Made by a program: the position numbers and the translations under genes. From Runella sp. CRIBMP (lineage in GTDB: Bacteria > Bacteroidota > Bacteroidia > Cytophagales > Spirosomataceae), in NCBI RefSeq assembly GCF_009905605.1, contig NZ_JAAAKZ010000010.1, forward strand, positions 124,001 through 188,000: a stretch of 64,000 bases of DNA. Reading direction: 5' to 3'. This document shows, piece after piece, positions 1-46,327 of the stretch. The notes beneath the pieces are model-generated. The model saw only the letters and a list, made by a program, of their open reading frames with translations. It did no database searches and had not been told where the DNA came from. Position 1 is the stretch's first letter, and every line of letters starts with the position of its first letter.

Positions 1-196
1 CTAATTTTCCTTCCTTTGTTTGAGCAAGAAGAATTAAAGGTATAGGCAAACCATTTAAGATACTGTCAATTAAAAATGCTTTTTCATCAACAGTCCAAAC
101 AAGTTTCCTCTGATATTTTCTATTGACCAAAAATATTCCTTCCGTATAATTTCTATACGCTTCTTGAATACTCATTCCTCTCGGTGTAATACTCAT
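1..196 (-). CDS. DUF262-domain protein, N-terminal fragment (runs off left edge)
   Basis: Only the first 65 or so residues are visible because the frame runs leftwards out of the window. The ATG (194-196) opens MSITPRGMSIQEAYRNY, followed by NRKYQRKLVW and then FLIDSILNGLPIPLILL. This R-x-YQR-x-x-VW ... LIDSIL-x-G-x-PIP arrangement is the usual start of the DUF262 fold, a ParB-like NTPase/nuclease domain found in GmrSD-type modification-dependent restriction enzymes, BrxU and many uncharacterised proteins. Whether a DUF1524 HNH nuclease domain follows cannot be seen. The gene is AT-richer than the cluster to its right. The family call is firm; a defence role is inference. Confidence 0.8.
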   Translation of the reverse strand, partial: MSITPRGMSIQEAYRNYTEGIFLVNRKYQRKLVWTVDEKAFLIDSILNGLPIPLILLAQTKEGKL

Positions 197-378
197 ATAT
201 TTCGATTTTTTTATTGTTTACTTGTGCCTAACATCTGCATGTCGCTAAATAGTTAAGTCAACTAAGGGACTTATCGTTTTCTGCCTTGCTTTATTAGTGA
301 CACTGTAAATAGCATATATTTTGTAGTACTGTCAAGCGGTTATCGAAAAACTTATCCAGCGCCCCCCCCAAACAATAA

Positions 379-403
379 AAGCGCGAGGCAAAACCCCGCG
401 CTT
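379..403 (-). terminator. Rho-independent terminator of the carbohydrate cluster
   Basis: AAGCGCG (379-385) pairs with CGCGCTT (397-403), extended inward by GG/CC across one mismatch, with a CAAAA loop. On the minus strand the stem is followed by TTTATTGTTT. It lies about 20 nt after the stop codon of the dehydrogenase gene and separates the cluster from the DUF262 gene. Confidence 0.75.
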
Positions 404-425
404 CGTGTATAAAGAGGAAATGAAA

Positions 426-1586
426 CTACCCAATCGCCTCAGCACCCGTATCTTTCCAGCTTCGCGAATTGGCTGATTCAATGACCGCTTCGCATACTTT
501 TTGGGTTTGGAGCGCGTCTCTGAACGTGGGGCCGCAAGGCTCGCCCGTTTCGAGGCTTTTGAGGAAATCGGCCACTTGGTGAATGAAGCTGTGCTCGTAG
601 CCGATGCCGCAGCCCGGAATCCACCAACGGTTCATGTACGGTTGGTCGCCGTCGGTCACGTGGATAGAGCGCCAGCCGCGCACGATAGATTCGTCGCTGT
701 GGTCAAAATATTCGAGGCGGTTCAGGTCGTGCAGATCCCAGCGGATAGACGCGTGCTCACCGTTGATTTCAAAGGTATAGAGGGCTTTGTGGCCACGAGC
801 ATAGCGCGTAGACTCAAAAAGCCCCAGTGAACCGTTGGCAAAATGGCAATGGAAAAGGCAGGCATCGTCGATACCCACGGGCTGTACTTTACCCGTGATT
901 TGGTGCATACGCTCTTTCACGAAGGTTTCGGTCATGGCCGATACGTCGGTAATGGCACCATTGAGCCACATGGCGGTATCAATACAGTGCGCCAATAAGT
1001 CGCCCGTTACGCCCGAACCAGCCGAATCTACATCCATGCGCCACAGGCCCGTTCCGCCCTGCGGCAGGTCGGCGTTGATGGTCCAGTCTTGGAGGAAGTT
1101 GGCGCGGTAGTGAAATATCTTGCCCAGCTTGCCCGAATCCACGATTTGCTTCGCCAAAGTCACGGCGGGTATGCGGCGGTAGTTGTACCAAACGGTGGTT
1201 TTCACGCCCGCTTTTTCGGCGGCTTCCACCATCGTTTCACCTTCGGCCAGGGTGCGCGCCAGTGGTTTTTCGCACAGAATCATCTTACCCGCAGCGGCAG
1301 CGGCCAAAGCGATTTCGGCGTGGCTGTCGTTGGGCGTACAGATGTCGATGGCGTCAATATCATCGCGGGCCACGAGTGCTTTCCAATCCGTTTCGTAAGA
1401 TTCGAAGCCCCATTGTTCGGCAAACGCCTTTACCTTCTCGGCGTTGCGCGAGCAAACCGCCTTCAATACGGGATGATATTCTAATTCAGGAAAAAAATTT
1501 GCAATTCGGTTATATCCATTGGAGTGCGTACGGCCCATCAAACCCGTTCCTACCAATCCAATGCGTATTTGTTTTTTTTGTGCCAT
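426..1586 (-). CDS. Gfo/Idh/MocA family NAD(P)-dependent oxidoreductase
   Basis: Predicted cytoplasmic sugar or cyclitol dehydrogenase of 386 residues, usual length for the family. The N-terminal Rossmann fold shows G13-T-G15-L-M-G18 ([10 protein letters not shown]), then CTPN (83-86) and the diagnostic EKP (106-108). The C-terminal substrate domain carries GDLLAHCID with D197, H200 and D203, placed like the catalytic Asp/His of inositol dehydrogenase and related enzymes. It is the last gene of a nine-gene minus-strand cluster, 94 nt after a TIM-barrel isomerase gene, and is followed by a terminator. Family members paired with DUF1080 proteins and TIM-barrel isomerases oxidise sugar hydroxyls, often at C3. 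Substrate and cofactor preference cannot be read from sequence. Confidence 0.93.
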
Positions 1587-2806: not shown

Positions 2807-4021
2807 TTAGAGTACTAAATCAGGGTTGTTGGGACCAAAGTGTTTTAGAATCACGATTGGGTCGTTAGCCGACGGATTGCTGATTACAACCCCTTCTTTT
2901 GCCGCTGCTTCGCTCACAAAAAACTCATCGTTGGTCAATTGTCCGTACCGAATCAACGCGGGAGTTTCGATGTCCCACACGCCAAATTTGCCGTGGCCTT
3001 GCATCACAATCATACCATACGCTGCCGCGTCTTTGATGGTCACGGTGGCGCCGGGCATGACGGTGAGTTCTTTGGCACTGTATGCAGCGGATTTATAACA
3101 AATCCAGTTTTCTACGTATCCTTGTGCTTGCATATCTTCCAACGGCCGTACGGGCTTAGGCATCATAAAGTGGTTGGCGGCAAAATTGGGGTCAACATTG
3201 GCTTCCCAGTCAATCACCGAAACCAACTCGTCATAATCACCTACCTTGTCTTGTGGCGTGCCATTCCAAAGCAACTCTTCTGGCACAATTGCCTCATTGA
3301 CAAGGCTTTGATACATTGCAAAAATATCGGATGCTTTTTGTGGCTCGTAGGTGCACAAGCTGCCTGGCGCGTGCAAAATACCTGGGGGCACGTCCCAGCC
3401 TGTGCCTGGTTCTAATTTATAAGCTGACGAAAAATTGGTAATTTTGTTGTCACCTTTGTTGAAGTCCATCAAGCATTGCTTGATTTGTTCTTTGGTTGTA
3501 CCCGGAGTAATTCCGAAGAATGTATAGGGGAAATCACCACCGTGGTTGTTGAGTTGGGGAGGGAAATAATAGGCTTCGGGTTTTCCATTTTGCCCTACCA
3601 AAGCCGCCTTTTCATCGTTATGGTGAATGTGGTGCGGCAGGGGGCCCATGTTGTCAAAAAACTTAGAATACATGGGCCAGCTTTTGTACTCATCCCACAG
3701 ACGGTCACCGATGATTTCGCCTTTCAGCTCGTCGATAACGTCTTTCAATAACAATTGTTCGGTTGTATCTCCGTCCTGAAAAACCACTTTGCTCAAGCCT
3801 TCGTGCTCGCCCGTCAACGGACCGTTTTTAGCTGGCGTGGTTGACGACAGCCAACGCTCGTCGATACCGCCGCGCACACCACCCAACACATAATAATCGT
3901 CGGGGTGTAATTTAATTCTTCGTCCGGGTACGCAAAAAGAGCGCGGTACCCATGTAGGGGCTAAGCGTAAAATCCCTTTTCCTTGTTCTAAGGCTTTTGC
4001 TGCTAAACTTACATTTGCCAT
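2807..4021 (-). CDS. Cupin-fold sugar isomerase-like protein (mannose-6-phosphate isomerase type)
   Basis: About 404 residues if started at the ATG at 4021 (MANVSLAAKAL). A GTG eight codons upstream (4045) is possible, but the ATG gives the cleaner start. Metal-binding pattern of class I phosphomannose isomerase-like cupins: PHHIHHND (H130, H131, H133, H134), GKPEAYYF (E149) and PPGILHAPG (H217). A second cupin half fills the C-terminus, including the stretch ending VILKHFGPNNPDLVL. No signal peptide. It sits inside the carbohydrate cluster, between the DUF4432 gene and a TIM-barrel isomerase gene. The KPE plus histidine pattern supports a Zn- or Fe-dependent isomerase or lyase acting on a sugar; the substrate is not known. 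Confidence 0.8.
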   Translation of the reverse strand: MANVSLAAKALEQGKGILRLAPTWVPRSFCVPGRRIKLHPDDYYVLGGVRGGIDERWLSSTTPAKNGPLTGEHEGLSKVVFQDGDTTEQLLLKDVIDELKGEIIGDRLWDEYKSWPMYSKFFDNMGPLPHHIHHNDEKAALVGQNGKPEAYYFPPQLNNHGGDFPYTFFGITPGTTKEQIKQCLMDFNKGDNKITNFSSAYKLEPGTGWDVPPGILHAPGSLCTYEPQKASDIFAMYQSLVNEAIVPEELLWNGTPQDKVGDYDELVSVIDWEANVDPNFAANHFMMPKPVRPLEDMQAQGYVENWICYKSAAYSAKELTVMPGATVTIKDAAAYGMIVMQGHGKFGVWDIETPALIRYGQLTNDEFFVSEAAAKEGVVISNPSANDPIVILKHFGPNNPDLVL

Positions 4022-4094
4022 TTTCTGTATAAAGTGCTCGTGCACAATTTAATAGTTGATTGTTGTTCGTTATTATTTTATTTGCAGAAACAGG

Positions 4095-11556: not shown

Positions 11557-12692
11557 TTTTCGGAGAAAGTAGTAATCGTCATGGTTTGATTGTGTAACTC
11601 ACAACGTGCATTGGGGTTTAGGGGCGAAATCTCCCCGTAAGAGTAAAAACCGGTCATAATTGGTTGTTCTCCGAATATCTCCCTAGCGGCCTCCACTTCT
11701 TCTTCGGTGCGGGAGCCTAGCACTAATTTTCGCCCCACGCAACTCACCAAAATGGCCAGTTCAGGCGGGCTGTCAAAAAAGCTCATTGAGTTTTGGGCGG
11801 CACTGGCAGAAGCATCAATCAAGCGGTCAAAATTTGCTTTCATAAACCGCACCAAAGCGCCTTTGGGTAGCTCGCCCGCGAAAGTCATGCTTCGGTTGGT
11901 TTCATCAATGGAAAGAATGGTCCGAACGATGGGCTTAGCATCGGCGGTCGCTCTCATCGAAAGCGGAAACAACAATGCCGCTCCGGGCAGTTCATCGGCG
12001 TATTTGCCCAAATATTCTTTATAAAGGTCAAGGGCCTTTTTTTCGCCGATTTTATAGAGCACATTGTACTCAGACTCAGTCACTTCTCTCTCTGGGCCGA
12101 ATACATCCCATCCACCCATAGTTCCGTGGCCTACGGTCAATTGCGTTCCGTAAAAGCCAATTCCTACGATTTTTCCTTCTTTGGGGTTTTCGTTCAGGCC
12201 TACGAGTGTTTTTTCAAACCGGGCTTCGTCGCCCGCCAAGCCACCTGAAATGAGGATTTTATCGCCCGTATGTTCATTGAGGGCCGCTATCAACTCGCTG
12301 CCGTTGACCCGCCCACCGTCAGAGATGACAAATATCGCCGTCAGGTCGTCGGCCAATAAATTTTGCGCTATTTTTTTTCCTGACTCAGCACTTTGAAAAT
12401 GGTTTTCGATGTCAATTTTAGTCGTTTTGACAAGTGTTTTATCAAATTCAATCGCAGTGACAATGACGGTTCCTTCATGGACCGAATTTTGGTATATTTC
12501 TCCCGATGTAGAATTAATGACAATTTCTGCGGCAGGAAATAGCTCCCTCAAATAGTCATAAGGTTGAAGGTCTTCTAAACACTTCCTCTCACCAAAAGCC
12601 AATACCAATTGGGCTTGCGAAGCAGCAAAAGCTGGGGTTTCAGATATAGGGTTCCAAGCACTATTCCGAAAAGCGAGTTGTTTTATCCTCAT
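11553..12692 (-). CDS. FIST N-/C-terminal domain sensory protein
   Basis: 379 residues. It carries an N-terminal FIST domain (about 20-220; landmarks STSGEIYQ, AIFVISDG, ISGGLAGDEARF, GIGFYG) and a C-terminal FIST domain (about 225-365; LFPLSMRA, VSCVGRKLVLGSRTEEE, GFYSYGEISP). FIST modules are predicted or shown to sense small ligands in signal-transduction proteins, and usually occur fused to or beside kinases. No signal peptide or membrane segment, so cytoplasmic. It shares 4 nt with the hybrid kinase that follows, strongly suggesting a two-protein sensor. The ligand is unknown; amino acids have been proposed for the family. Confidence 0.92.
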   Translation of the reverse strand: MRIKQLAFRNSAWNPISETPAFAASQAQLVLAFGERKCLEDLQPYDYLRELFPAAEIVINSTSGEIYQNSVHEGTVIVTAIEFDKTLVKTTKIDIENHFQSAESGKKIAQNLLADDLTAIFVISDGGRVNGSELIAALNEHTGDKILISGGLAGDEARFEKTLVGLNENPKEGKIVGIGFYGTQLTVGHGTMGGWDVFGPEREVTESEYNVLYKIGEKKALDLYKEYLGKYADELPGAALLFPLSMRATADAKPIVRTILSIDETNRSMTFAGELPKGALVRFMKANFDRLIDASASAAQNSMSFFDSPPELAILVSCVGRKLVLGSRTEEEVEAAREIFGEQPIMTGFYSYGEISPLNPNARCELHNQTMTITTFSEK

Positions 12693-12974
12693 TTTATTGT
12701 AGAAATGCGAATATAAGATATGTTTTAGTATTTTCTGTTGTTAAATGGGTATATTTTCTTGAGAATATACCTACTGAGGAAGTATGTTTTAAAATAGCTG
12801 ATTAGGCACTTTAAAATGGTCCATTCCTTCTAAAACCAATAAGAAAGAATTTTACTTCATCTAATCGTATATATTTATCTGCGCCACTAACAAGCATTAT
12901 TTATGGTCAGCGAAAGCGCTGGCTTGCTTCGTAAGTACGAAATTGTTAGGTTAAAAGAAGTAGTGAGGCGTATT

Positions 12975-40686: not shown

Positions 40687-40992
40687 ATGAATCAAAAAAT
40701 TCGTATCAAACTGAAGTCATTTGACCACAACTTGGTGGACAAATCGGCGGACCGCATTGTAAAGGCGGTGAAATCAACGGGTGCTGTGGTTAGCGGCCCG
40801 ATTCCATTGCCTACAGAAAAGCAAATCTACACGGTACTTCGCTCACCCCACGTGAACAAGAAATCACGTGAGCAGTTCCAACTTTGCACCTACAAGCGCC
40901 TGATTGACATTCACTCTTCAAGCGCCAAAACCGTAGATGCTTTGATGAAACTCGAATTGCCAAGTGGTGTTGATGTTGAGATTAAAGTTTAA
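40687..40992 (+). CDS. rpsJ: 30S ribosomal protein S10
   Basis: 101 residues, the standard length. [47 protein letters not shown] and the closing [11 protein letters not shown] identify S10, a 30S head protein that also binds NusB in antitermination. Probably co-transcribed with fusA. It is followed at once by a terminator rather than by rplC, so it is separated from the usual S10 operon. Its last five codons are part of a sequence repeated at 44620. Confidence 0.98.
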
Positions 40993-41048
40993 TGATAAGG
41001 TTTCCAACCACCAAGCCGACTTCGAAAGAGGTCGGCTTTTGTTTTTTT
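40981..41048 (+). repeat. Direct repeat copy 1: rpsJ 3' end plus terminator
   Basis: ATTAAAGTTTAAT (40981-40993, the last rpsJ codons and stop), TAAGGTTTCC, then terminator stem AAGCCGAC (41013-41020) with GTCGGCTT (41031-41038) and TTGTTTTTTT. The same blocks in the same order and orientation occur at 44620-44684. Confidence 0.85.
41013..41048 (+). terminator. rpsJ terminator
   Basis: 8-bp G/C-rich stem AAGCCGAC/GTCGGCTT with a TTCGAAAGAG loop region followed by TTGTTTTTTT. Ends the fusA-rpsJ transcript 21 nt after the stop codon. Confidence 0.9.
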
Positions 41049-41353
41049 AGGGGTAAAATGAGCCCCTGCCGCCTCCAAAACCGATTGGTAACTTTTCAGG
41101 TTATTGTTTGTAACTCTCCACAGGCTAACTGTATATTTGGCACACTATATGCTAAGGCGTATCGTATTCTTACCGCACCGACAATACGACGCTTCCGCAT
41201 CTCACCCTACTTTCTGATAAACAATGTTGACAGCCTAGCCCAAAAAGCTGTTTGTCAGAATGATATCCCATCCCCCGGATTCATAAATAAAGTTGACTGA
41301 CAAATGGTTGATTTGGTGTTTAAAAGAACATTCTATAAACAACAACCAAATAC
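41049..41353. other. Gene-free spacer at the left end of the putative island
   Basis: About 305 nt between the rpsJ terminator and the HTH gene. A 102-codon open frame that starts within the last bases of rpsJ crosses it, but has no family resemblance, no promoter of its own and runs through the terminator, so I do not call it a gene. No mobile-element or RNA signature seen. Confidence 0.5.
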
Positions 41354-41644
41354 ATGACAGCCAAACAACAACCCGAAAACTTCGAAGAATTAGATGCATT
41401 AGAAATATTTCTTCTCCGTAACAATACACGCCTTACGCACCAAGAACTTTTAGTTCTTGGTGCGGCCATAAACGGCAAAACAAATGCTGAGATATCCGAA
41501 GAGATATGCCGCTCAATCGCTACTGTCAAGACCCACAAAAATCACATCATCCGAAAATTGGGCTTAAATGGAAAAGACGGTTTTCGGCGCTACTTGCTCA
41601 AAATGGCTCACATTGGTTTTAAAGAGAAGAAAAATCAACCCTAG
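41354..41644 (+). CDS. Small LuxR/GerE-type helix-turn-helix protein
   Basis: 96 residues made almost only of a GerE-type DNA-binding domain: LTHQELLVLGAAINGKTNAE, then ISEEICRSIATVKTHKNHII and RKLGLNGKDGFRRYL (about 27-80), the four-helix LuxR C-terminal layout with the SIATVKTH recognition helix. There is no receiver or ligand domain, so it is either constitutive or partnered. The start ATG is at 41354. It is the first gene after rpsJ in the region flanked by direct repeats and could control the secreted-protein genes behind it; that is inference. A 22-nt tandem repeat covers its stop codon. Confidence 0.87.
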   Translation: MTAKQQPENFEELDALEIFLLRNNTRLTHQELLVLGAAINGKTNAEISEEICRSIATVKTHKNHIIRKLGLNGKDGFRRYLLKMAHIGFKEKKNQP

Positions 41645-41673
41645 GGTGGAGAAAAATCAAACTTTGGGTGGAG
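41630..41673 (+). repeat. 22-nt tandem repeat across the HTH gene stop
   Basis: Two adjacent 22-nt units (41630-41651, 41652-41673), each AAAAATCAA-x(5)-GGGTGGAG with differences only in the middle. The first unit contains the TAG stop of the HTH gene. Confidence 0.65.
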
Positions 41674-41992
41674 GCGCGATAAAAATATTTTGCAGAGATT
41701 TGCCCCTGACTATTGCGCATAATTAGAAAATGAGAAAGCCCCGCTTCAGTTTGGTACTATGGGTGCGGATCTTGATTGAACGCCGGGTATTATCTCTATA
41801 ATGTTATGGATCCCTGAACTGTAGCCTACTATTATATAGGTGATATGACTCGTTGGGAATACACAAGTGGAGGATATAGGAGAGAAATGTGTTATGGTTT
41901 TTCAACTTAAGGTTCATTTGTTAACTAATATTTCAGCTAAAAACATCCCCTTCAAAAAAGTTTGCAAAAATTTAACTACATACTTTGAAGCA

Positions 41993-42706
41993 ATGAAATA
42001 TTACTTTTTCTTTTTGTTTATCTTATCAAATATACAAGTGTCATGTAATGAGCAAGCTCATAATGATGCAAGAGTGCTGAACAAAAATGCACGTATTGCT
42101 TCTGAAATAGACTTACTTACTTATTCTATTCCACCTCATGAAGGTAAACCTGTCTCAGTGGGAGCATTAATGGACTTGAAAAGCAGGGGATTGCCTATGC
42201 TGGAGTCAGATATTGAAATAGAAAAAGCAAAAAAAACTTGGCAGCAAATGGATTCGCTTTTTGTGGCTGTTTATCCTACTATTACCGACCCGCAAACGCG
42301 ATTTGTTTGGGAAGAACATATGGCCCAAGTCATTTTGAAGGACTTTAAATTATTACTCAGTACTGAAGTAAAAGCATTGGAGAAAATAGCATTTTATACC
42401 GACATTTTACATCGTAATCAGGGAGTACATGCAGGACATCTCTATTTAGCTTTGACAAAGCTTAAAGGTTTTTGGTCTGAACAAAAAATCAGAGAATATA
42501 GTCAGACTGCTCTTAAGCGCGTAAATGTAATGCTTACCCAGAGTGAAGAAAAGGTTCTGTTAATGAAACAGAATGATGAAAAAAATCTACAAAATTTATC
42601 CTTTCAAGAGCGTAAAGAAGCTGAGAAATCTCTGGGGAGAATATTTAAAATGTACGATGAGCACATTTATTTTTCGGCAAAGTTAAAGACGATATCGCAG
42701 GATTAA
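41993..42706 (+). CDS. Hypothetical lipoprotein, alpha-helical
   Basis: 237 residues from ATG 41993, which opens a lipoprotein signal (MKYYFFFLFILSNIQVSC, C18); frame-open sequence upstream does not look coding. The mature protein is charged and mostly helical (EIEKAKKTWQQMDSLFVAVY; LKALEK-type repeats; QNLSFQERKEAEKSLGRIF) with no recognisable family. AT-rich relative to the rest of the window. It lies in the segment between the two rpsJ-terminator repeats, 350 nt after the HTH gene. Function unknown. Confidence 0.72.
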   Translation: MKYYFFFLFILSNIQVSCNEQAHNDARVLNKNARIASEIDLLTYSIPPHEGKPVSVGALMDLKSRGLPMLESDIEIEKAKKTWQQMDSLFVAVYPTITDPQTRFVWEEHMAQVILKDFKLLLSTEVKALEKIAFYTDILHRNQGVHAGHLYLALTKLKGFWSEQKIREYSQTALKRVNVMLTQSEEKVLLMKQNDEKNLQNLSFQERKEAEKSLGRIFKMYDEHIYFSAKLKTISQD

Positions 42707-42802
42707 CCAGGAATTATTACTATTCAAGAGTACTTCATTCAAAGTAAAAAAATCTCTTTTCTTCCTATATACCAAAGACTTTGCTTTGGTAAAACGCTAT
42801 CC

Positions 42803-43342
42803 ATGAAAAAAATCATTTTTCCCCTTCTGCTTTCTATGATCGTTTTTGCCGGATATACACAAAAACCTTGTCAGGAATATACTCTCAATGAACAGGAAGG
42901 AGTGATTATCAGCCAATATATTATGTCTTGCGTCAGGGATCATTGGTTTGTCAACAACAAAGGGATTGTGGAAATCAGGCGGTTTGTCAACGAAAAGGGA
43001 GAAAAATGCTGGTACATGATGGCCGTCATCGACGACAGCTACAAAGACAATCCTCCTACAGAATACGCATGGCGCAATGGAGATTTGGTTTTTTTCTATG
43101 ATGGTATTACGCCAACCTCTTTTGCAAAGAAACAAACTACGCCCACCCCTGAGTTATTGGCCTGTTTGGAAGAAGTCACCTACGACAAACTTTACATTCG
43201 GCCACCTGCCAAAACACAGTACATTACCGTATTTGGGAAAAAGATTATCAACACGGGTCGTCATTGTTTAGGAAATTGTGCCAATGACCTGATTGTGACA
43301 TTTCATGAAAGAGGAGATTATACCAAAAACATTGTCCATTGA
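42803..43342 (+). CDS. Hypothetical secreted protein
   Basis: 179 residues with signal peptide MKKIIFPLLLSMIVFAGYTQ. Six cysteines in the mature part (KPCQEY, MSCVRD, EKCWYM, LACLEE, RHCLGNCAND) suggest disulphides or export to the surface. A YxMMAVIDDSYKDN strand, followed by NGDLVFFYDGITPT, is reminiscent of the AIKE...IDGVLVLF layout of the two paralogous proteins further on, so it may be a distant relative. No known domain recognised. A short hairpin (ACCAAAG/CTTTGGT, 42771-42790) lies upstream. Confidence 0.72.
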   Translation: MKKIIFPLLLSMIVFAGYTQKPCQEYTLNEQEGVIISQYIMSCVRDHWFVNNKGIVEIRRFVNEKGEKCWYMMAVIDDSYKDNPPTEYAWRNGDLVFFYDGITPTSFAKKQTTPTPELLACLEEVTYDKLYIRPPAKTQYITVFGKKIINTGRHCLGNCANDLIVTFHERGDYTKNIVH

Positions 43343-43560
43343 CGACCGTCTGAGGTTTTCATAAGTGAGCAAACTAAACCTCTTCCCATATATCAATAAC
43401 TTGGCAAGAGTGATAACTTACTACTGTTTTGCCCGTTGTAGCCAAGATAGCGTACCCCAAAATTCAGGCAGTTAATTTTAAATTATTCGGCCTTTCTGAA
43501 TTTTCGGGGTGCGCTTCATGCGTTGCCCCCCAGAGTAAACTGTCAATAACTCATTTTCAA

Positions 43561-44052
43561 ATGAATCATCCTATTATGAAATGTGCTTTTTTGAGTCTCC
43601 TGATGCTGATAGTGTTGCGGGGAGCTGCTCAGCCCGTGCCTCAGGTGACGCTCCAAAATCCCGAACTCGAACAAAAAATCCGGCATTACATTCAGGAGTC
43701 ACGAAACAAAGGTTTTTTGCCCGATACCTTGGGCATCGTAGTGCTTTCTGACGATGGGCGTTTTGATGACCGGCCCTTGCATCTGATGGCCATCCGCCAA
43801 GCCCCCCCCACTATGTTTAAAAAACAGCTCATCCCCGCTTGTTATACCCTTATCGACGGGGCCTTGGTGCTGATACGGTCGGGCTTTGAGTTGAGCTTTC
43901 AGTATCCCAAGGCGTTTCATCAAGCCGTTGCTCGGCTCACCAAAGGGTACTACACGCCCAAGAGAGGGCGGCGGGTGGTTGCGCCCAAAAACATCAAAGA
44001 GGCAACCACCTACATCGAAGGGGGAATCTATAACGGCACTTTCATCAAATGA
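43561..44052 (+). CDS. Hypothetical secreted protein, paralogue 1
   Basis: 163 residues from ATG 43561 (MNHPIMKCAFLSLLMLIVL); ATG 43576 would also give a signal peptide, ending near RGAAQ. The mature part begins PVPQVTLQNPELEQKIRHYI and continues LGIVVLSDDG, LHLMAIRQAP, PACYTLIDGALVLI and FHQAVARL. The next gene has the same layout (SVPQVTIKD, DYIAES, TGIVFVSYGR, VQLSAIKE, AQYTFIDGVLVLF, YLQAVDAL), so the two are tandem duplicates. No known domain. Gene end and the next frame abut. Confidence 0.75.
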   Translation: MNHPIMKCAFLSLLMLIVLRGAAQPVPQVTLQNPELEQKIRHYIQESRNKGFLPDTLGIVVLSDDGRFDDRPLHLMAIRQAPPTMFKKQLIPACYTLIDGALVLIRSGFELSFQYPKAFHQAVARLTKGYYTPKRGRRVVAPKNIKEATTYIEGGIYNGTFIK

Positions 44053-44084
44053 TACTACCTGCTGCACCAAAACTTTTTAAATCC

Positions 44085-44624
44085 ATGAAATTCAACCTGT
44101 TATTCTTTTTTGGGGTTTTATTCCACCTCCCTGTTTGTGCGCAATCTGTTCCTCAAGTGACTATCAAAGACCGTGTTCTTTTTAAACTTTTTGAGGATTA
44201 CATTGCTGAATCGAAACTCAAACAGATTCTTACCGACAGTACCGGTATTGTATTCGTGAGTTACGGCCGTACCACCGACGGTTATAGAGTTCAGTTATCA
44301 GCCATTAAAGAACAAATAAGTTCCTATTTCGTAAAAAGTTCTATCCCTGCACAATACACTTTCATTGATGGCGTACTGGTCCTGTTCGCTAGTTCGTATA
44401 TGTACAATTCGCAATTATCTGCGGCCTATTTGCAAGCCGTAGATGCACTGGTAGAAGGCCGTTTTAAAAGACTCGAAGAAGAAAATGGATGGGCGGTAAA
44501 ATGGGAAAATATCAATGGGCAACTTGTTAAAAACAGATACTTTTTTGAGGGAGATTCAAACAGCAAGCTGATTACCTATCCTTTTGACGGTAGCGAACGC
44601 ATCATCCAAAAAATGTTAAATTAA
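44085..44624 (+). CDS. Hypothetical secreted protein, paralogue 2
   Basis: 179 residues from ATG 44085, with signal peptide MKFNLLFFFGVLFHLPVCAQ. It is a diverged copy of the preceding protein, with conserved SVPQVT, YIAES, TGIV, AIKE and IDGVLVLF blocks and its own C-terminus (GWAVKWENINGQLVKNRYFF). The last codons (AAATTAA) fall inside the second copy of the rpsJ 3'-end repeat, so the end of this gene coincides with the right boundary of the putative island. Function unknown. Confidence 0.76.
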   Translation: MKFNLLFFFGVLFHLPVCAQSVPQVTIKDRVLFKLFEDYIAESKLKQILTDSTGIVFVSYGRTTDGYRVQLSAIKEQISSYFVKSSIPAQYTFIDGVLVLFASSYMYNSQLSAAYLQAVDALVEGRFKRLEEENGWAVKWENINGQLVKNRYFFEGDSNSKLITYPFDGSERIIQKMLN

Positions 44625-44684
44625 AGTTTAATCACTAAGGTTTCCCATAACAAAAGCCGACTTCTTTCGAAGTCGGCTTTTGTT
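44620..44684 (+). repeat. Direct repeat copy 2: rpsJ 3'-end-like sequence plus terminator
   Basis: ATTAAAGTTTAAT (44620-44632), TAAGGTTTCC (44636-44645) and the terminator arms repeat the rpsJ end at 40981-41048. Only the 3' end of rpsJ is present; the rest is the end of an unrelated secreted-protein gene. Confidence 0.83.
44649..44684. terminator. Bidirectional terminator
   Basis: Perfect 16-bp stem AACAAAAGCCGACTTC (44649-44664) with GAAGTCGGCTTTTGTT (44669-44684), TTTC loop. It can stop transcripts of the secreted-protein genes and read-through from the opposite strand. Confidence 0.85.
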
Positions 44685-44812
44685 GGTTTATCTGTTTTTG
44701 ACCCGTAAATAAAAAACACCTTTTTTACCTCCATTTTGAGCAATAAATTGCCACAAAATCCAATCATAACTTCTTTTATTGAAAAAAATGAGGATTAAAT
44801 TCCCCAATTCAA

Positions 44813-46327
44813 TTATCTCTTCTTCTCCTTCACTTCCTGCAATTCCACCTGTAATTCCTTCAATTTTTCAGGATTAGCCTCAGCCAGATTATTTTTCTCC
44901 CCAATGTCTTTGGCCAGATTATATAGCTGCGGCTGCGGGTCATTGCCAAGCTCAGTATTGGTCTGAACGCTCATTTTTTGGCCTTTACTCGGCTCAATGT
45001 ATTTCCAGTCTCCTTTGATAAAGGAAAAAGTACCCGCGTGTTCTATCAAATAATCACGTCCTTTCTTGTCTTTACCCAAAAAAGCCGACAAGTAATCTTT
45101 GGTGTCGGGGGCGGTGGTTGCGTCAAATTTTTGCCCCGTCAATGCCGCAAAAGAAGCCAATAAGTCTACTTGGCTCACCAACGCATTGGAAACTCCCGCT
45201 TTCACCTGCCCCGGCCACCGCACAATGAACGGCACGCGCGTACCCGCGTCAAACGCGCTATATTTGCCGCCGCGCAATGGCCCTGCAGGCGTATGTCCGT
45301 TGAGCAACTCTACGGCTTGGTCTTGGTAGCCATCGTCCACCACGGGGCCATTATCGCTAGAAAAAATGACAAGAGTGTTATTGGTCAGCTTTAGTTTGTC
45401 CAAAGTTTTCATGACTTCGCCCACCGTCCAGTCCAATTGCAAAATAACGTCGCCGCGCGGCCCCATGCCACTTTTGCCCGTAAAACGCTCGTGCGGTACG
45501 CGCGGTACGTGAATATCTTGGGTAGAGAAATACAAAAAGAAAGGCTCGGCTTGGTGTTTTTCGATGAATGAAACGGCTTTTTCGGTAAAAATATCGGCCA
45601 TGTCTTCATCCTTCCACCGCGCTGATTTTCCGCCCGTCATGTAGCCAATCCGGCCGATGCCGTTGATAATCGTAAAATCATGCCCGTGCGAATGTTTCAT
45701 TTTTAGTAGTTCAGGATTGGCGCGCCCCGTGGGTTCATTACCAATGGGCTCCTTAAAACTTACTTTAATGGGGTCGGCAGGGTCAAGATTCACCACCCGA
45801 CGGTTTTCAACGTAGACACACGGCACGCGGTCGCCAGTAGCAGCCATAATAAACGACTCATCAAAACCAATATCCAACGGGCTCGGTTTGATTTCGCCGT
45901 TCCAATCGGGCCCGCCCTGCGGTCCGAGGCCCAAATGCCACTTACCTACCACGCCCGTTTTGTAACCTGCTTTCTGAAAAACCAGCGGCAACGTACTGCG
46001 TCCGGGCAGAATCAGCGCGGCGGCGTCGCCCGTGGCTACGCCCGTGCCCGGCTTGCGCCAAGCGTATTCACCCGTCAGCATTGAGTACCGCGACGGTGTG
46101 CAAGTAGCGGAGGTCGTATGAGCATTGGTAAAGCGTATGCCTGCTTTGGCGAGTTTATCAATGTTGGGGGTAGCTATTTTTTTGGCTCCGTAACAACTTA
46201 CATCACCGTAACCCAAATCGTCGGCGTAGATGATGATGACATTGGGCCGTACCGCTTGGCTGAATGCCATTTTGGTAAAAAGAACAAGCACGCCGAAAGC
46301 GTAAACGAGTTTGTTTAATTTAATCAT
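44813..46327 (-). CDS. Exported arylsulfatase-type sulfatase (S1 family)
   Basis: 504 residues with signal peptide MIKLNKLVYAFGVLVLFTKMAFSQ. Alkaline-phosphatase-superfamily metal ligands D36-D37 (IIIYADDLGYGD) and the formylglycine motif C76-T-P-S-R80 (TTSATCTPSR), then GYKTGVVGKWHLG, FSSDNGPVVDD and SAFDAGTRVPFIVRWPG. It hydrolyses sulfate esters, probably on glycans, in the periplasm after its Cys is converted to formylglycine; no maturase gene is in view. It is transcribed away from the sigma/SusCD locus, but probably serves the same substrate class as the two sulfatases there. Ends near a bidirectional terminator. Confidence 0.94.
   Translation of the reverse strand: MIKLNKLVYAFGVLVLFTKMAFSQAVRPNVIIIYADDLGYGDVSCYGAKKIATPNIDKLAKAGIRFTNAHTTSATCTPSRYSMLTGEYAWRKPGTGVATGDAAALILPGRSTLPLVFQKAGYKTGVVGKWHLGLGPQGGPDWNGEIKPSPLDIGFDESFIMAATGDRVPCVYVENRRVVNLDPADPIKVSFKEPIGNEPTGRANPELLKMKHSHGHDFTIINGIGRIGYMTGGKSARWKDEDMADIFTEKAVSFIEKHQAEPFFLYFSTQDIHVPRVPHERFTGKSGMGPRGDVILQLDWTVGEVMKTLDKLKLTNNTLVIFSSDNGPVVDDGYQDQAVELLNGHTPAGPLRGGKYSAFDAGTRVPFIVRWPGQVKAGVSNALVSQVDLLASFAALTGQKFDATTAPDTKDYLSAFLGKDKKGRDYLIEHAGTFSFIKGDWKYIEPSKGQKMSVQTNTELGNDPQPQLYNLAKDIGEKNNLAEANPEKLKELQVELQEVKEKKR

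What the first reader, a model, noticed from the sequence alone, without database searches (positions are those of the whole stretch)
40981..44684. Island bounded by duplicated rpsJ 3' ends
The end of rpsJ with its terminator (40981-41048) recurs at 44620-44684: 13 identical bases including the last rpsJ codons, TAAGGTTTCC, and both terminator arms, in the same order. Between lie a LuxR-type HTH gene and four small secreted-protein genes that are AT-richer than the flanks and match no family I know. This is the footprint of integration at a gene 3' end with target-site duplication, or of a carried-in rpsJ fragment. No integrase remains.
Basis: partly seen in the sequence, partly recalled or inferred. 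Interest (0 to 1): 0.75.

Follow-up and report, generated by a model that had tools for sequence, protein, structure and literature searches.

The report
LuxR-led gene cassettes behind rpsJ
Behind a ribosomal-protein gene of this Runella bacterium sits a swappable gene package flanked by copies of that gene's tail; related strains carry zero, one or two such packages there and similar ones behind a second core gene, so it looks like a hot spot for exchanging secreted and surface proteins.

Summary
The duplication is real. The rpsJ 3' end plus terminator recurs 3.6 kb downstream (79 nt, 80%; score 34.5, at most 14.0 in 2000 shuffles), and the terminator pattern occurs only at these two places in the 7.1-Mb genome. 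Across 13 genomes of the genus the rpsJ-sulfatase interval is highly variable. G007 has a bare site. G010 has three rpsJ tails around two tandem units whose heads (leader, LuxR) match while the cargo differs. Compared with G010 the window lacks one whole unit, cut exactly at the tails, and has other cargo in its first unit. A second array behind atpG has the same plan: LuxR genes, the same leader and related cargo, with duplicated atpG tails in three of five arrays tested. The conserved leader block was found only in the two arrays (17 of 17 hits). I read the island as one unit of a LuxR-controlled cassette array, changed mainly by recombination between gene tails. No integrase is in the island, but one acting in trans was not searched for. 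Import from other strains and LuxR control are inferred.

The parts
40687..40992 (+). rpsJ (ribosomal protein S10, named from sequence)
   Evidence: ORF list; protein 98-100% identical in the 13 genus genomes
40981..41050 (+). rpsJ 3' end plus terminator, copy 1 (left boundary of the unit)
41046..41353 (+). Leader of the LuxR gene: promoter-like TATATTTG (Bacteroidota -7 consensus, recalled) and a hairpin-forming stretch (about 41204-41275)
   Evidence: 92% to both G010 leaders, 90% and 68% to the two G002 leaders; fold z -2.92, 2 of 200 shuffles as good, for 41120-41360; motif scan
41354..41644 (+). LuxR/GerE-type HTH regulator, 96 aa, no sensor domain
   Evidence: PF00196 E 1.1e-11; at E<=1e-18 in 8 of 222 genomes of the family, all of this genus
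41628..41671 (+). Operator-like pair: two 22-nt palindrome-like repeats, start to start 22 nt, 86% identical
   Evidence: the repeat finder D5; leader alignment; binding by LuxR is inferred
41688..41718 (+). 31-nt conserved leader block 5' of the cargo (probable promoter region, inferred)
   Evidence: 17 hits at up to 3 mismatches in 7 of 13 genomes, all in the rpsJ or atpG arrays
41993..42706 (+). Cargo B, lipoprotein-like, 237 aa; relatives in G010 (rpsJ array) and G006/G009 (atpG array)
42803..43342 (+). Cargo C, secreted-looking, 179 aa; no relative among the array proteins compared
43561..44052 (+). Cargo D, secreted-looking (start at 43561 or 43576); about 40% identical to E in the matched part
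44085..44624 (+). Cargo E, secreted-looking; its stop codon lies inside the copied rpsJ tail
44620..44690 (+). rpsJ 3' end plus terminator, copy 2 (right boundary)
44813..46327 (-). Sulfatase gene (named from sequence) that closes the interval; next to rpsJ in G007

Best explanation
The island is one unit of a LuxR-led cassette array at a hypervariable site behind rpsJ. A unit reads: rpsJ tail with terminator, leader, LuxR gene, operator-like palindromes and conserved leader block, variable genes for secreted or surface proteins, next rpsJ tail with terminator. Shown by comparison: units vary in number and cargo between species; one whole unit is present in G010 and absent here with ends at the rpsJ tails; the leader block and several cargo families are shared with a second array behind atpG, some of which have duplicated atpG tails. 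Inferred: DNA carrying the rpsJ 3' end plus LuxR and cargo came in from other strains, its rpsJ part paired with the resident gene, and the other end joined within or near the old rpsJ tail, pushing that tail to the far side. The direct repeats then let units be added, lost or swapped by ordinary homologous recombination. Also inferred: LuxR binds the palindromes and drives the cargo, so each unit is a regulated operon that ends in a working terminator.
For: Bare site in G007. Three rpsJ tails in G010; heads -16..844 and 3174..4038 are 94% identical, cargo different. Window and G010 match through the end of gene E and the tail to about TTTTGTTG; there the window enters the right flank and G010 enters unit 2, and G010's third tail enters the same flank. 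The tail pattern with long spacer has 7 matches in 6 of 13 genomes, all at rpsJ. atpG tail copies followed after 9-49 nt by the luxR2 end and leader in G010, G012 and G003. Leader block 17 hits: 5 in rpsJ arrays, 12 in atpG arrays. Operator word CACCCTAGGGTKGAG: 15 rows, 11 distinct sites, all in atpG arrays; the rpsJ array has a one-base variant. Six protein clusters occur in both arrays. LuxR-family pairs at the atpG locus in 7 of 13 genomes. Transformation makes tandem duplications by alternative pairing at repeats in pneumococcus (PMC3784515, abstract and section list seen).
Against: 9 of 13 genomes show one rpsJ tail; G003 has a LuxR unit with one tail. Four of the 13 stretches (G002, G004, G008, G012) end at contig ends. 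In G006/G009 the inner leader copy has no atpG tail before it. Window and G010 differ in the island by about as much as in the neighbouring sulfatase stretch (leader 91.5%, D-E 90.9%; flank 93%), so divergence does not by itself show import. G007's bare site could be a deletion. A recombinase in trans was not searched for. LuxR binding, expression and transfer are untested.
Confidence: 0.58

Rival explanations
1. Integrase-type island: an element integrated site-specifically at the rpsJ 3' end, rebuilt the gene end, displaced the old end to the far side, and has lost its integrase or uses one in trans.
For: Gene 3'-end target, direct repeats, bare site, tandem units, displaced tail next to the right flank.
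Against: No integrase among the island proteins and none recognised by eye in the ORF lists of relatives (not a family search). Tail copies start at different points. A second array with another gene's tail. LuxR alignment: none of 42 pattern matches in viral contigs confirmed; LuxR protein: one weak Streptomyces plasmid match.
Confidence: 0.2
2. Tandem duplication within the lineage followed by divergence, deletion and cargo replacement, with little or no transfer between strains.
For: G010 unit heads are 94% alike; D and E, and the TonB-dependent receptors of the atpG array, are paralogues; island divergence between window and G010 is close to that of the flank.
Against: The two G010 units carry different cargo, and the window and G010 first units carry different cargo under the same head; cargo is patchy across the tree.
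Confidence: 0.16
3. The similarity is only convergent or reused terminator sequence, placed by selection to end the cargo transcript.
For: Copy 2 is a good terminator at the end of the cargo.
Against: The repeat includes rpsJ coding sequence (about 13 nt here, 44 nt in G012) and a spacer that termination does not need; score far above shuffles.
Confidence: 0.03

Closest known systems
Integrase-type genomic islands at 3' ends of tRNA or protein genes (recalled)
   Same: 3'-end target, direct repeats, tandem occupation, bare sites
   Different: No integrase in the island, repeats of variable extent, a second array with another gene's tail, LuxR-headed units
Integron gene cassettes (recalled)
   Same: Tandem exchangeable units separated by similar short elements with a hairpin
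   Different: Multi-gene units with own leader; separators are copies of a neighbouring core gene's tail; integron integrase not searched for
Transformation-driven merodiploidy by alternative pairing at repeats (PMC3784515, abstract and section list)
   Same: Repeats allow unequal exchange and tandem duplication
   Different: There about 100 to 900 kb in pneumococcus; here about 3-kb units at a fixed site, mechanism inferred
TonB-dependent transporter - DUF4249 operons (BT2172-BT2173; one passage of PMC11003636)
   Same: The own genome's atpG array holds such pairs
   Different: The window island carries small secreted-looking proteins of no known family instead

Membership tests
Integrase-type genomic island | Direct repeats of a core gene 3' end flank the insert | tested here: met
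Integrase-type genomic island | Empty site in relatives | tested here: met
   G007 bare; whether never occupied or deleted is open
Integrase-type genomic island | Encodes a site-specific recombinase | tested here: not met
   LuxR and four cargo proteins plus one overlapping ORF against Pfam: only GerE above cut-off
Integrase-type genomic island | Fixed crossover point | tested here: inconclusive
   Left ends of tail copies differ; decay could also cause this
Integron cassette array | Integron integrase and attC sites | not tested
LuxR/GerE HTH regulators | GerE domain | tested here: met
   PF00196, 44.6 bits, cut-off 23.5
LuxR/GerE HTH regulators | Binds the palindromes upstream of the cargo | not testable with these tools
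   Co-occurrence only
TonB-dependent transporter - DUF4249 cassette | Plug plus DUF4249 pair | tested here: not met
   Absent from the window island; present in the own genome's atpG array

The most novel reading that the evidence does not exclude
A mobile cassette system without its own integrase that uses the 3' ends and terminator hairpins of core genes (rpsJ, atpG) as recombination boundaries, so that each arriving unit brings a LuxR-controlled promoter and ends in a ready terminator; possibly the hairpins themselves are recognised by a recombinase in trans.
Probability: 0.12. Interest if true: 0.75.

Novelty: new variant of a known kind. Interest (0 to 1): 0.5.

Why it matters
If right, these bacteria keep two parallel LuxR-controlled arrays in which genes for secreted and surface proteins are exchanged as regulated units, with tails of core genes as exchange points. 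It would show how a variable locus can grow and shrink without a dedicated recombinase, and it can be tested because the unit that is present in G010 and absent here has sharp borders.

Tried and rejected
Rejected: common terminator similarity (pattern unique in the genome; shuffles; coding part in G012). Rejected: a dispersed mobile repeat (7 matches in 6 of 13 genomes, all at rpsJ; the pattern misses the short-spacer form such as the window's own copy 1). Led nowhere: Rfam on 40960-44720, 16 matches, none at its gathering score; structure of cargo E, mean pLDDT 46.1, so no fold search; viral contigs, 42 pattern matches, none confirmed; plasmids, one Streptomyces match at 40% identity. Genome contigs: 15 loci, 5 of them titled Runella; the other 10 match only short stretches at 36-49% identity. 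Paper searches: Runella+LuxR+TonB-dependent, 0; rpsJ+genomic island+attachment site+integrase, 2 listed, not opened; DUF4249+TonB-dependent receptor, 1, one passage seen; Runella slithyformis+genomic island+horizontal gene transfer, 0; homology-facilitated illegitimate recombination+natural transformation+tandem, 12, 8 listed, one outline seen; Bacteroidetes+integration hotspot and other terms, 0; BT2172 or BT2173, 2 listed. I saw no description of this array in those searches; the library holds open-licence papers only. Third site: in G004 contig C7 a TonB receptor-DUF4249-OMP-like operon has the same leader hairpin, and G008 keeps the hairpin without the operon, but no direct repeat of a gene tail was found there.

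Full report
What is there. rpsJ (40687-40992) ends in a terminator. 3.64 kb on, at the end of gene E, the same tail and terminator recur (40981-41050 and 44620-44690): 80% over 79 nt, with 13 identical bases around the rpsJ stop. The local score is 34.5 against at most 14.0 in 2000 dinucleotide shuffles; outside copy 2 no window chunk exceeds 13.0. The terminator pattern is at only these two places in the genome. Between them lie a LuxR/GerE gene and four genes without a Pfam match above cut-off.

Relatives. The set is 13 genomes of one genus, this one included. Contig lengths and positions tie G002, G006, G009 and G012 to records titled Runella (a MAG, sp. MFBS21, R. zeae, R. aurantiaca); the other names are not known from calls. 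All 13 have rpsJ and 12 have the sulfatase at E<=1e-150. In G007 the sulfatase lies about 60 nt behind rpsJ. In G001, G006, G009 and G011 7.6-13.4 kb of other genes lie between. G003 has a LuxR unit with other cargo and one rpsJ tail; G004 has a shortened LuxR gene and then a contig end. G000, G002 and G012 have two tails and G010 three; the other 9 of 13 show one. The stretches of G002, G004, G008 and G012 end at contig ends, so their counts are minima.

Units. In G010 the stretch from the rpsJ tail through leader and LuxR to the first cargo gene (-16..844) recurs at 3174..4038, 94% identical, with different cargo. Window and G010 align through the end of gene E and the second tail to about TTTTGTTG. 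There the window enters the sulfatase flank and G010 enters unit 2; G010's third tail enters the same flank. So one whole unit, bounded by tails, is present in G010 and absent here. The first units also differ: genes B and C here, another gene in G010. Between the two, rpsJ is 99.3% identical, leader 91.5%, D-E 90.9%, the sulfatase stretch 93%. The island is thus hardly more diverged than its flank, and this comparison alone does not show import. The G012 copy carries 44 nt of rpsJ coding sequence. Left ends of copies lie at about -8 to -16 (G000, G002, G010, one shared copy), -20 (third tail of G010) and -44 (G012).

Second array. 7 of 13 genomes have a pair of related LuxR genes elsewhere, upstream of cargo that ends at the 3' end of atpG (G002 is split over contigs). 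Five of these arrays were tested for repeats of the atpG end: in G010, G012 and G003 the atpG tail and terminator recur inside the array, followed 9-49 nt on by a copy of the luxR2 end and leader; in G006 and G009 the leader recurs without an atpG tail. The own genome has four leader copies there with one readable atpG-tail remnant (by eye). The six other genomes have other genes next to atpG. The 31-nt leader block has 17 hits at up to 3 mismatches, 5 in rpsJ and 12 in atpG arrays. The operator word gave 15 rows, 11 distinct sites, all in atpG arrays. Clustering array ORFs of at least 70 aa gave 23 clusters, 6 of which occur in both arrays. One of the 23 is the second LuxR gene itself, one pair looks spurious, and cluster 5 may be joined by leader sequence read in frame. 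The own atpG array includes three TonB-dependent receptors and three DUF4249 proteins.

Distribution. With an alignment of 11 LuxR proteins, 8 of 222 genomes of the family match at E<=1e-18, all of this genus. In genome contigs 5 of 15 confirmed loci are Runella and 10 are short matches at 36-49%. On the atpG+rpsJ tree G000, G002, G010 and G012 form a clade with G003 next; G006/G009 have atpG arrays; the rest lack the family's threshold except the shortened copy in G004.

Mechanism. Shown: variable site, bare form, whole-unit presence/absence at the tails, a second array of the same plan. Inferred: import of DNA with the gene tail, homologous pairing, later growth and loss between tails, LuxR control through the palindromes. 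Transformation-driven duplication by alternative pairing is described for pneumococcus (PMC3784515, abstract and section list). I give this reading 0.58, an integrase footprint 0.2 and duplication within the lineage 0.16. On re-reading the calls I lowered the first from 0.62 and raised the last from 0.13, because the flank is nearly as diverged as the island.

Against it. G003 has no second tail; G006/G009 leader copies lack atpG tails; a recombinase in trans was not searched for; the first duplication step is not observed; G007 may be a deletion; absence of integrases in relatives' arrays rests on reading ORF lists by eye.

Noticed in passing
window 41204-41275; L109 4697; L110 4664: A hairpin-forming leader motif heads the LuxR gene of the rpsJ units and, in G004, a TonB receptor-DUF4249-OMP-like operon at a third site (named by likeness to array cargo); G008 keeps the motif there without the operon. 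9 hits in 6 of 39 genomes; no Rfam family at gathering score in the window stretch.
   Followed up: partly
L090, oriented 12530-12835: The atpG tail copy in G003 lies beside a possible start codon on the atpG strand, giving a micro-ORF like the atpG C-terminus (read by eye).
   Followed up: no
L034, 3541-3747 behind rpsJ: The second LuxR copy of G002 has an in-frame stop and is only 41-42% identical to the window's, so it looks decayed.
   Followed up: no
L044, 918-1470 behind rpsJ: In G012 the second rpsJ tail is followed by the flank and about 50 nt of a sulfatase 3' end, then unrelated DNA to the contig end, while the full sulfatase is on another contig.
   Followed up: partly
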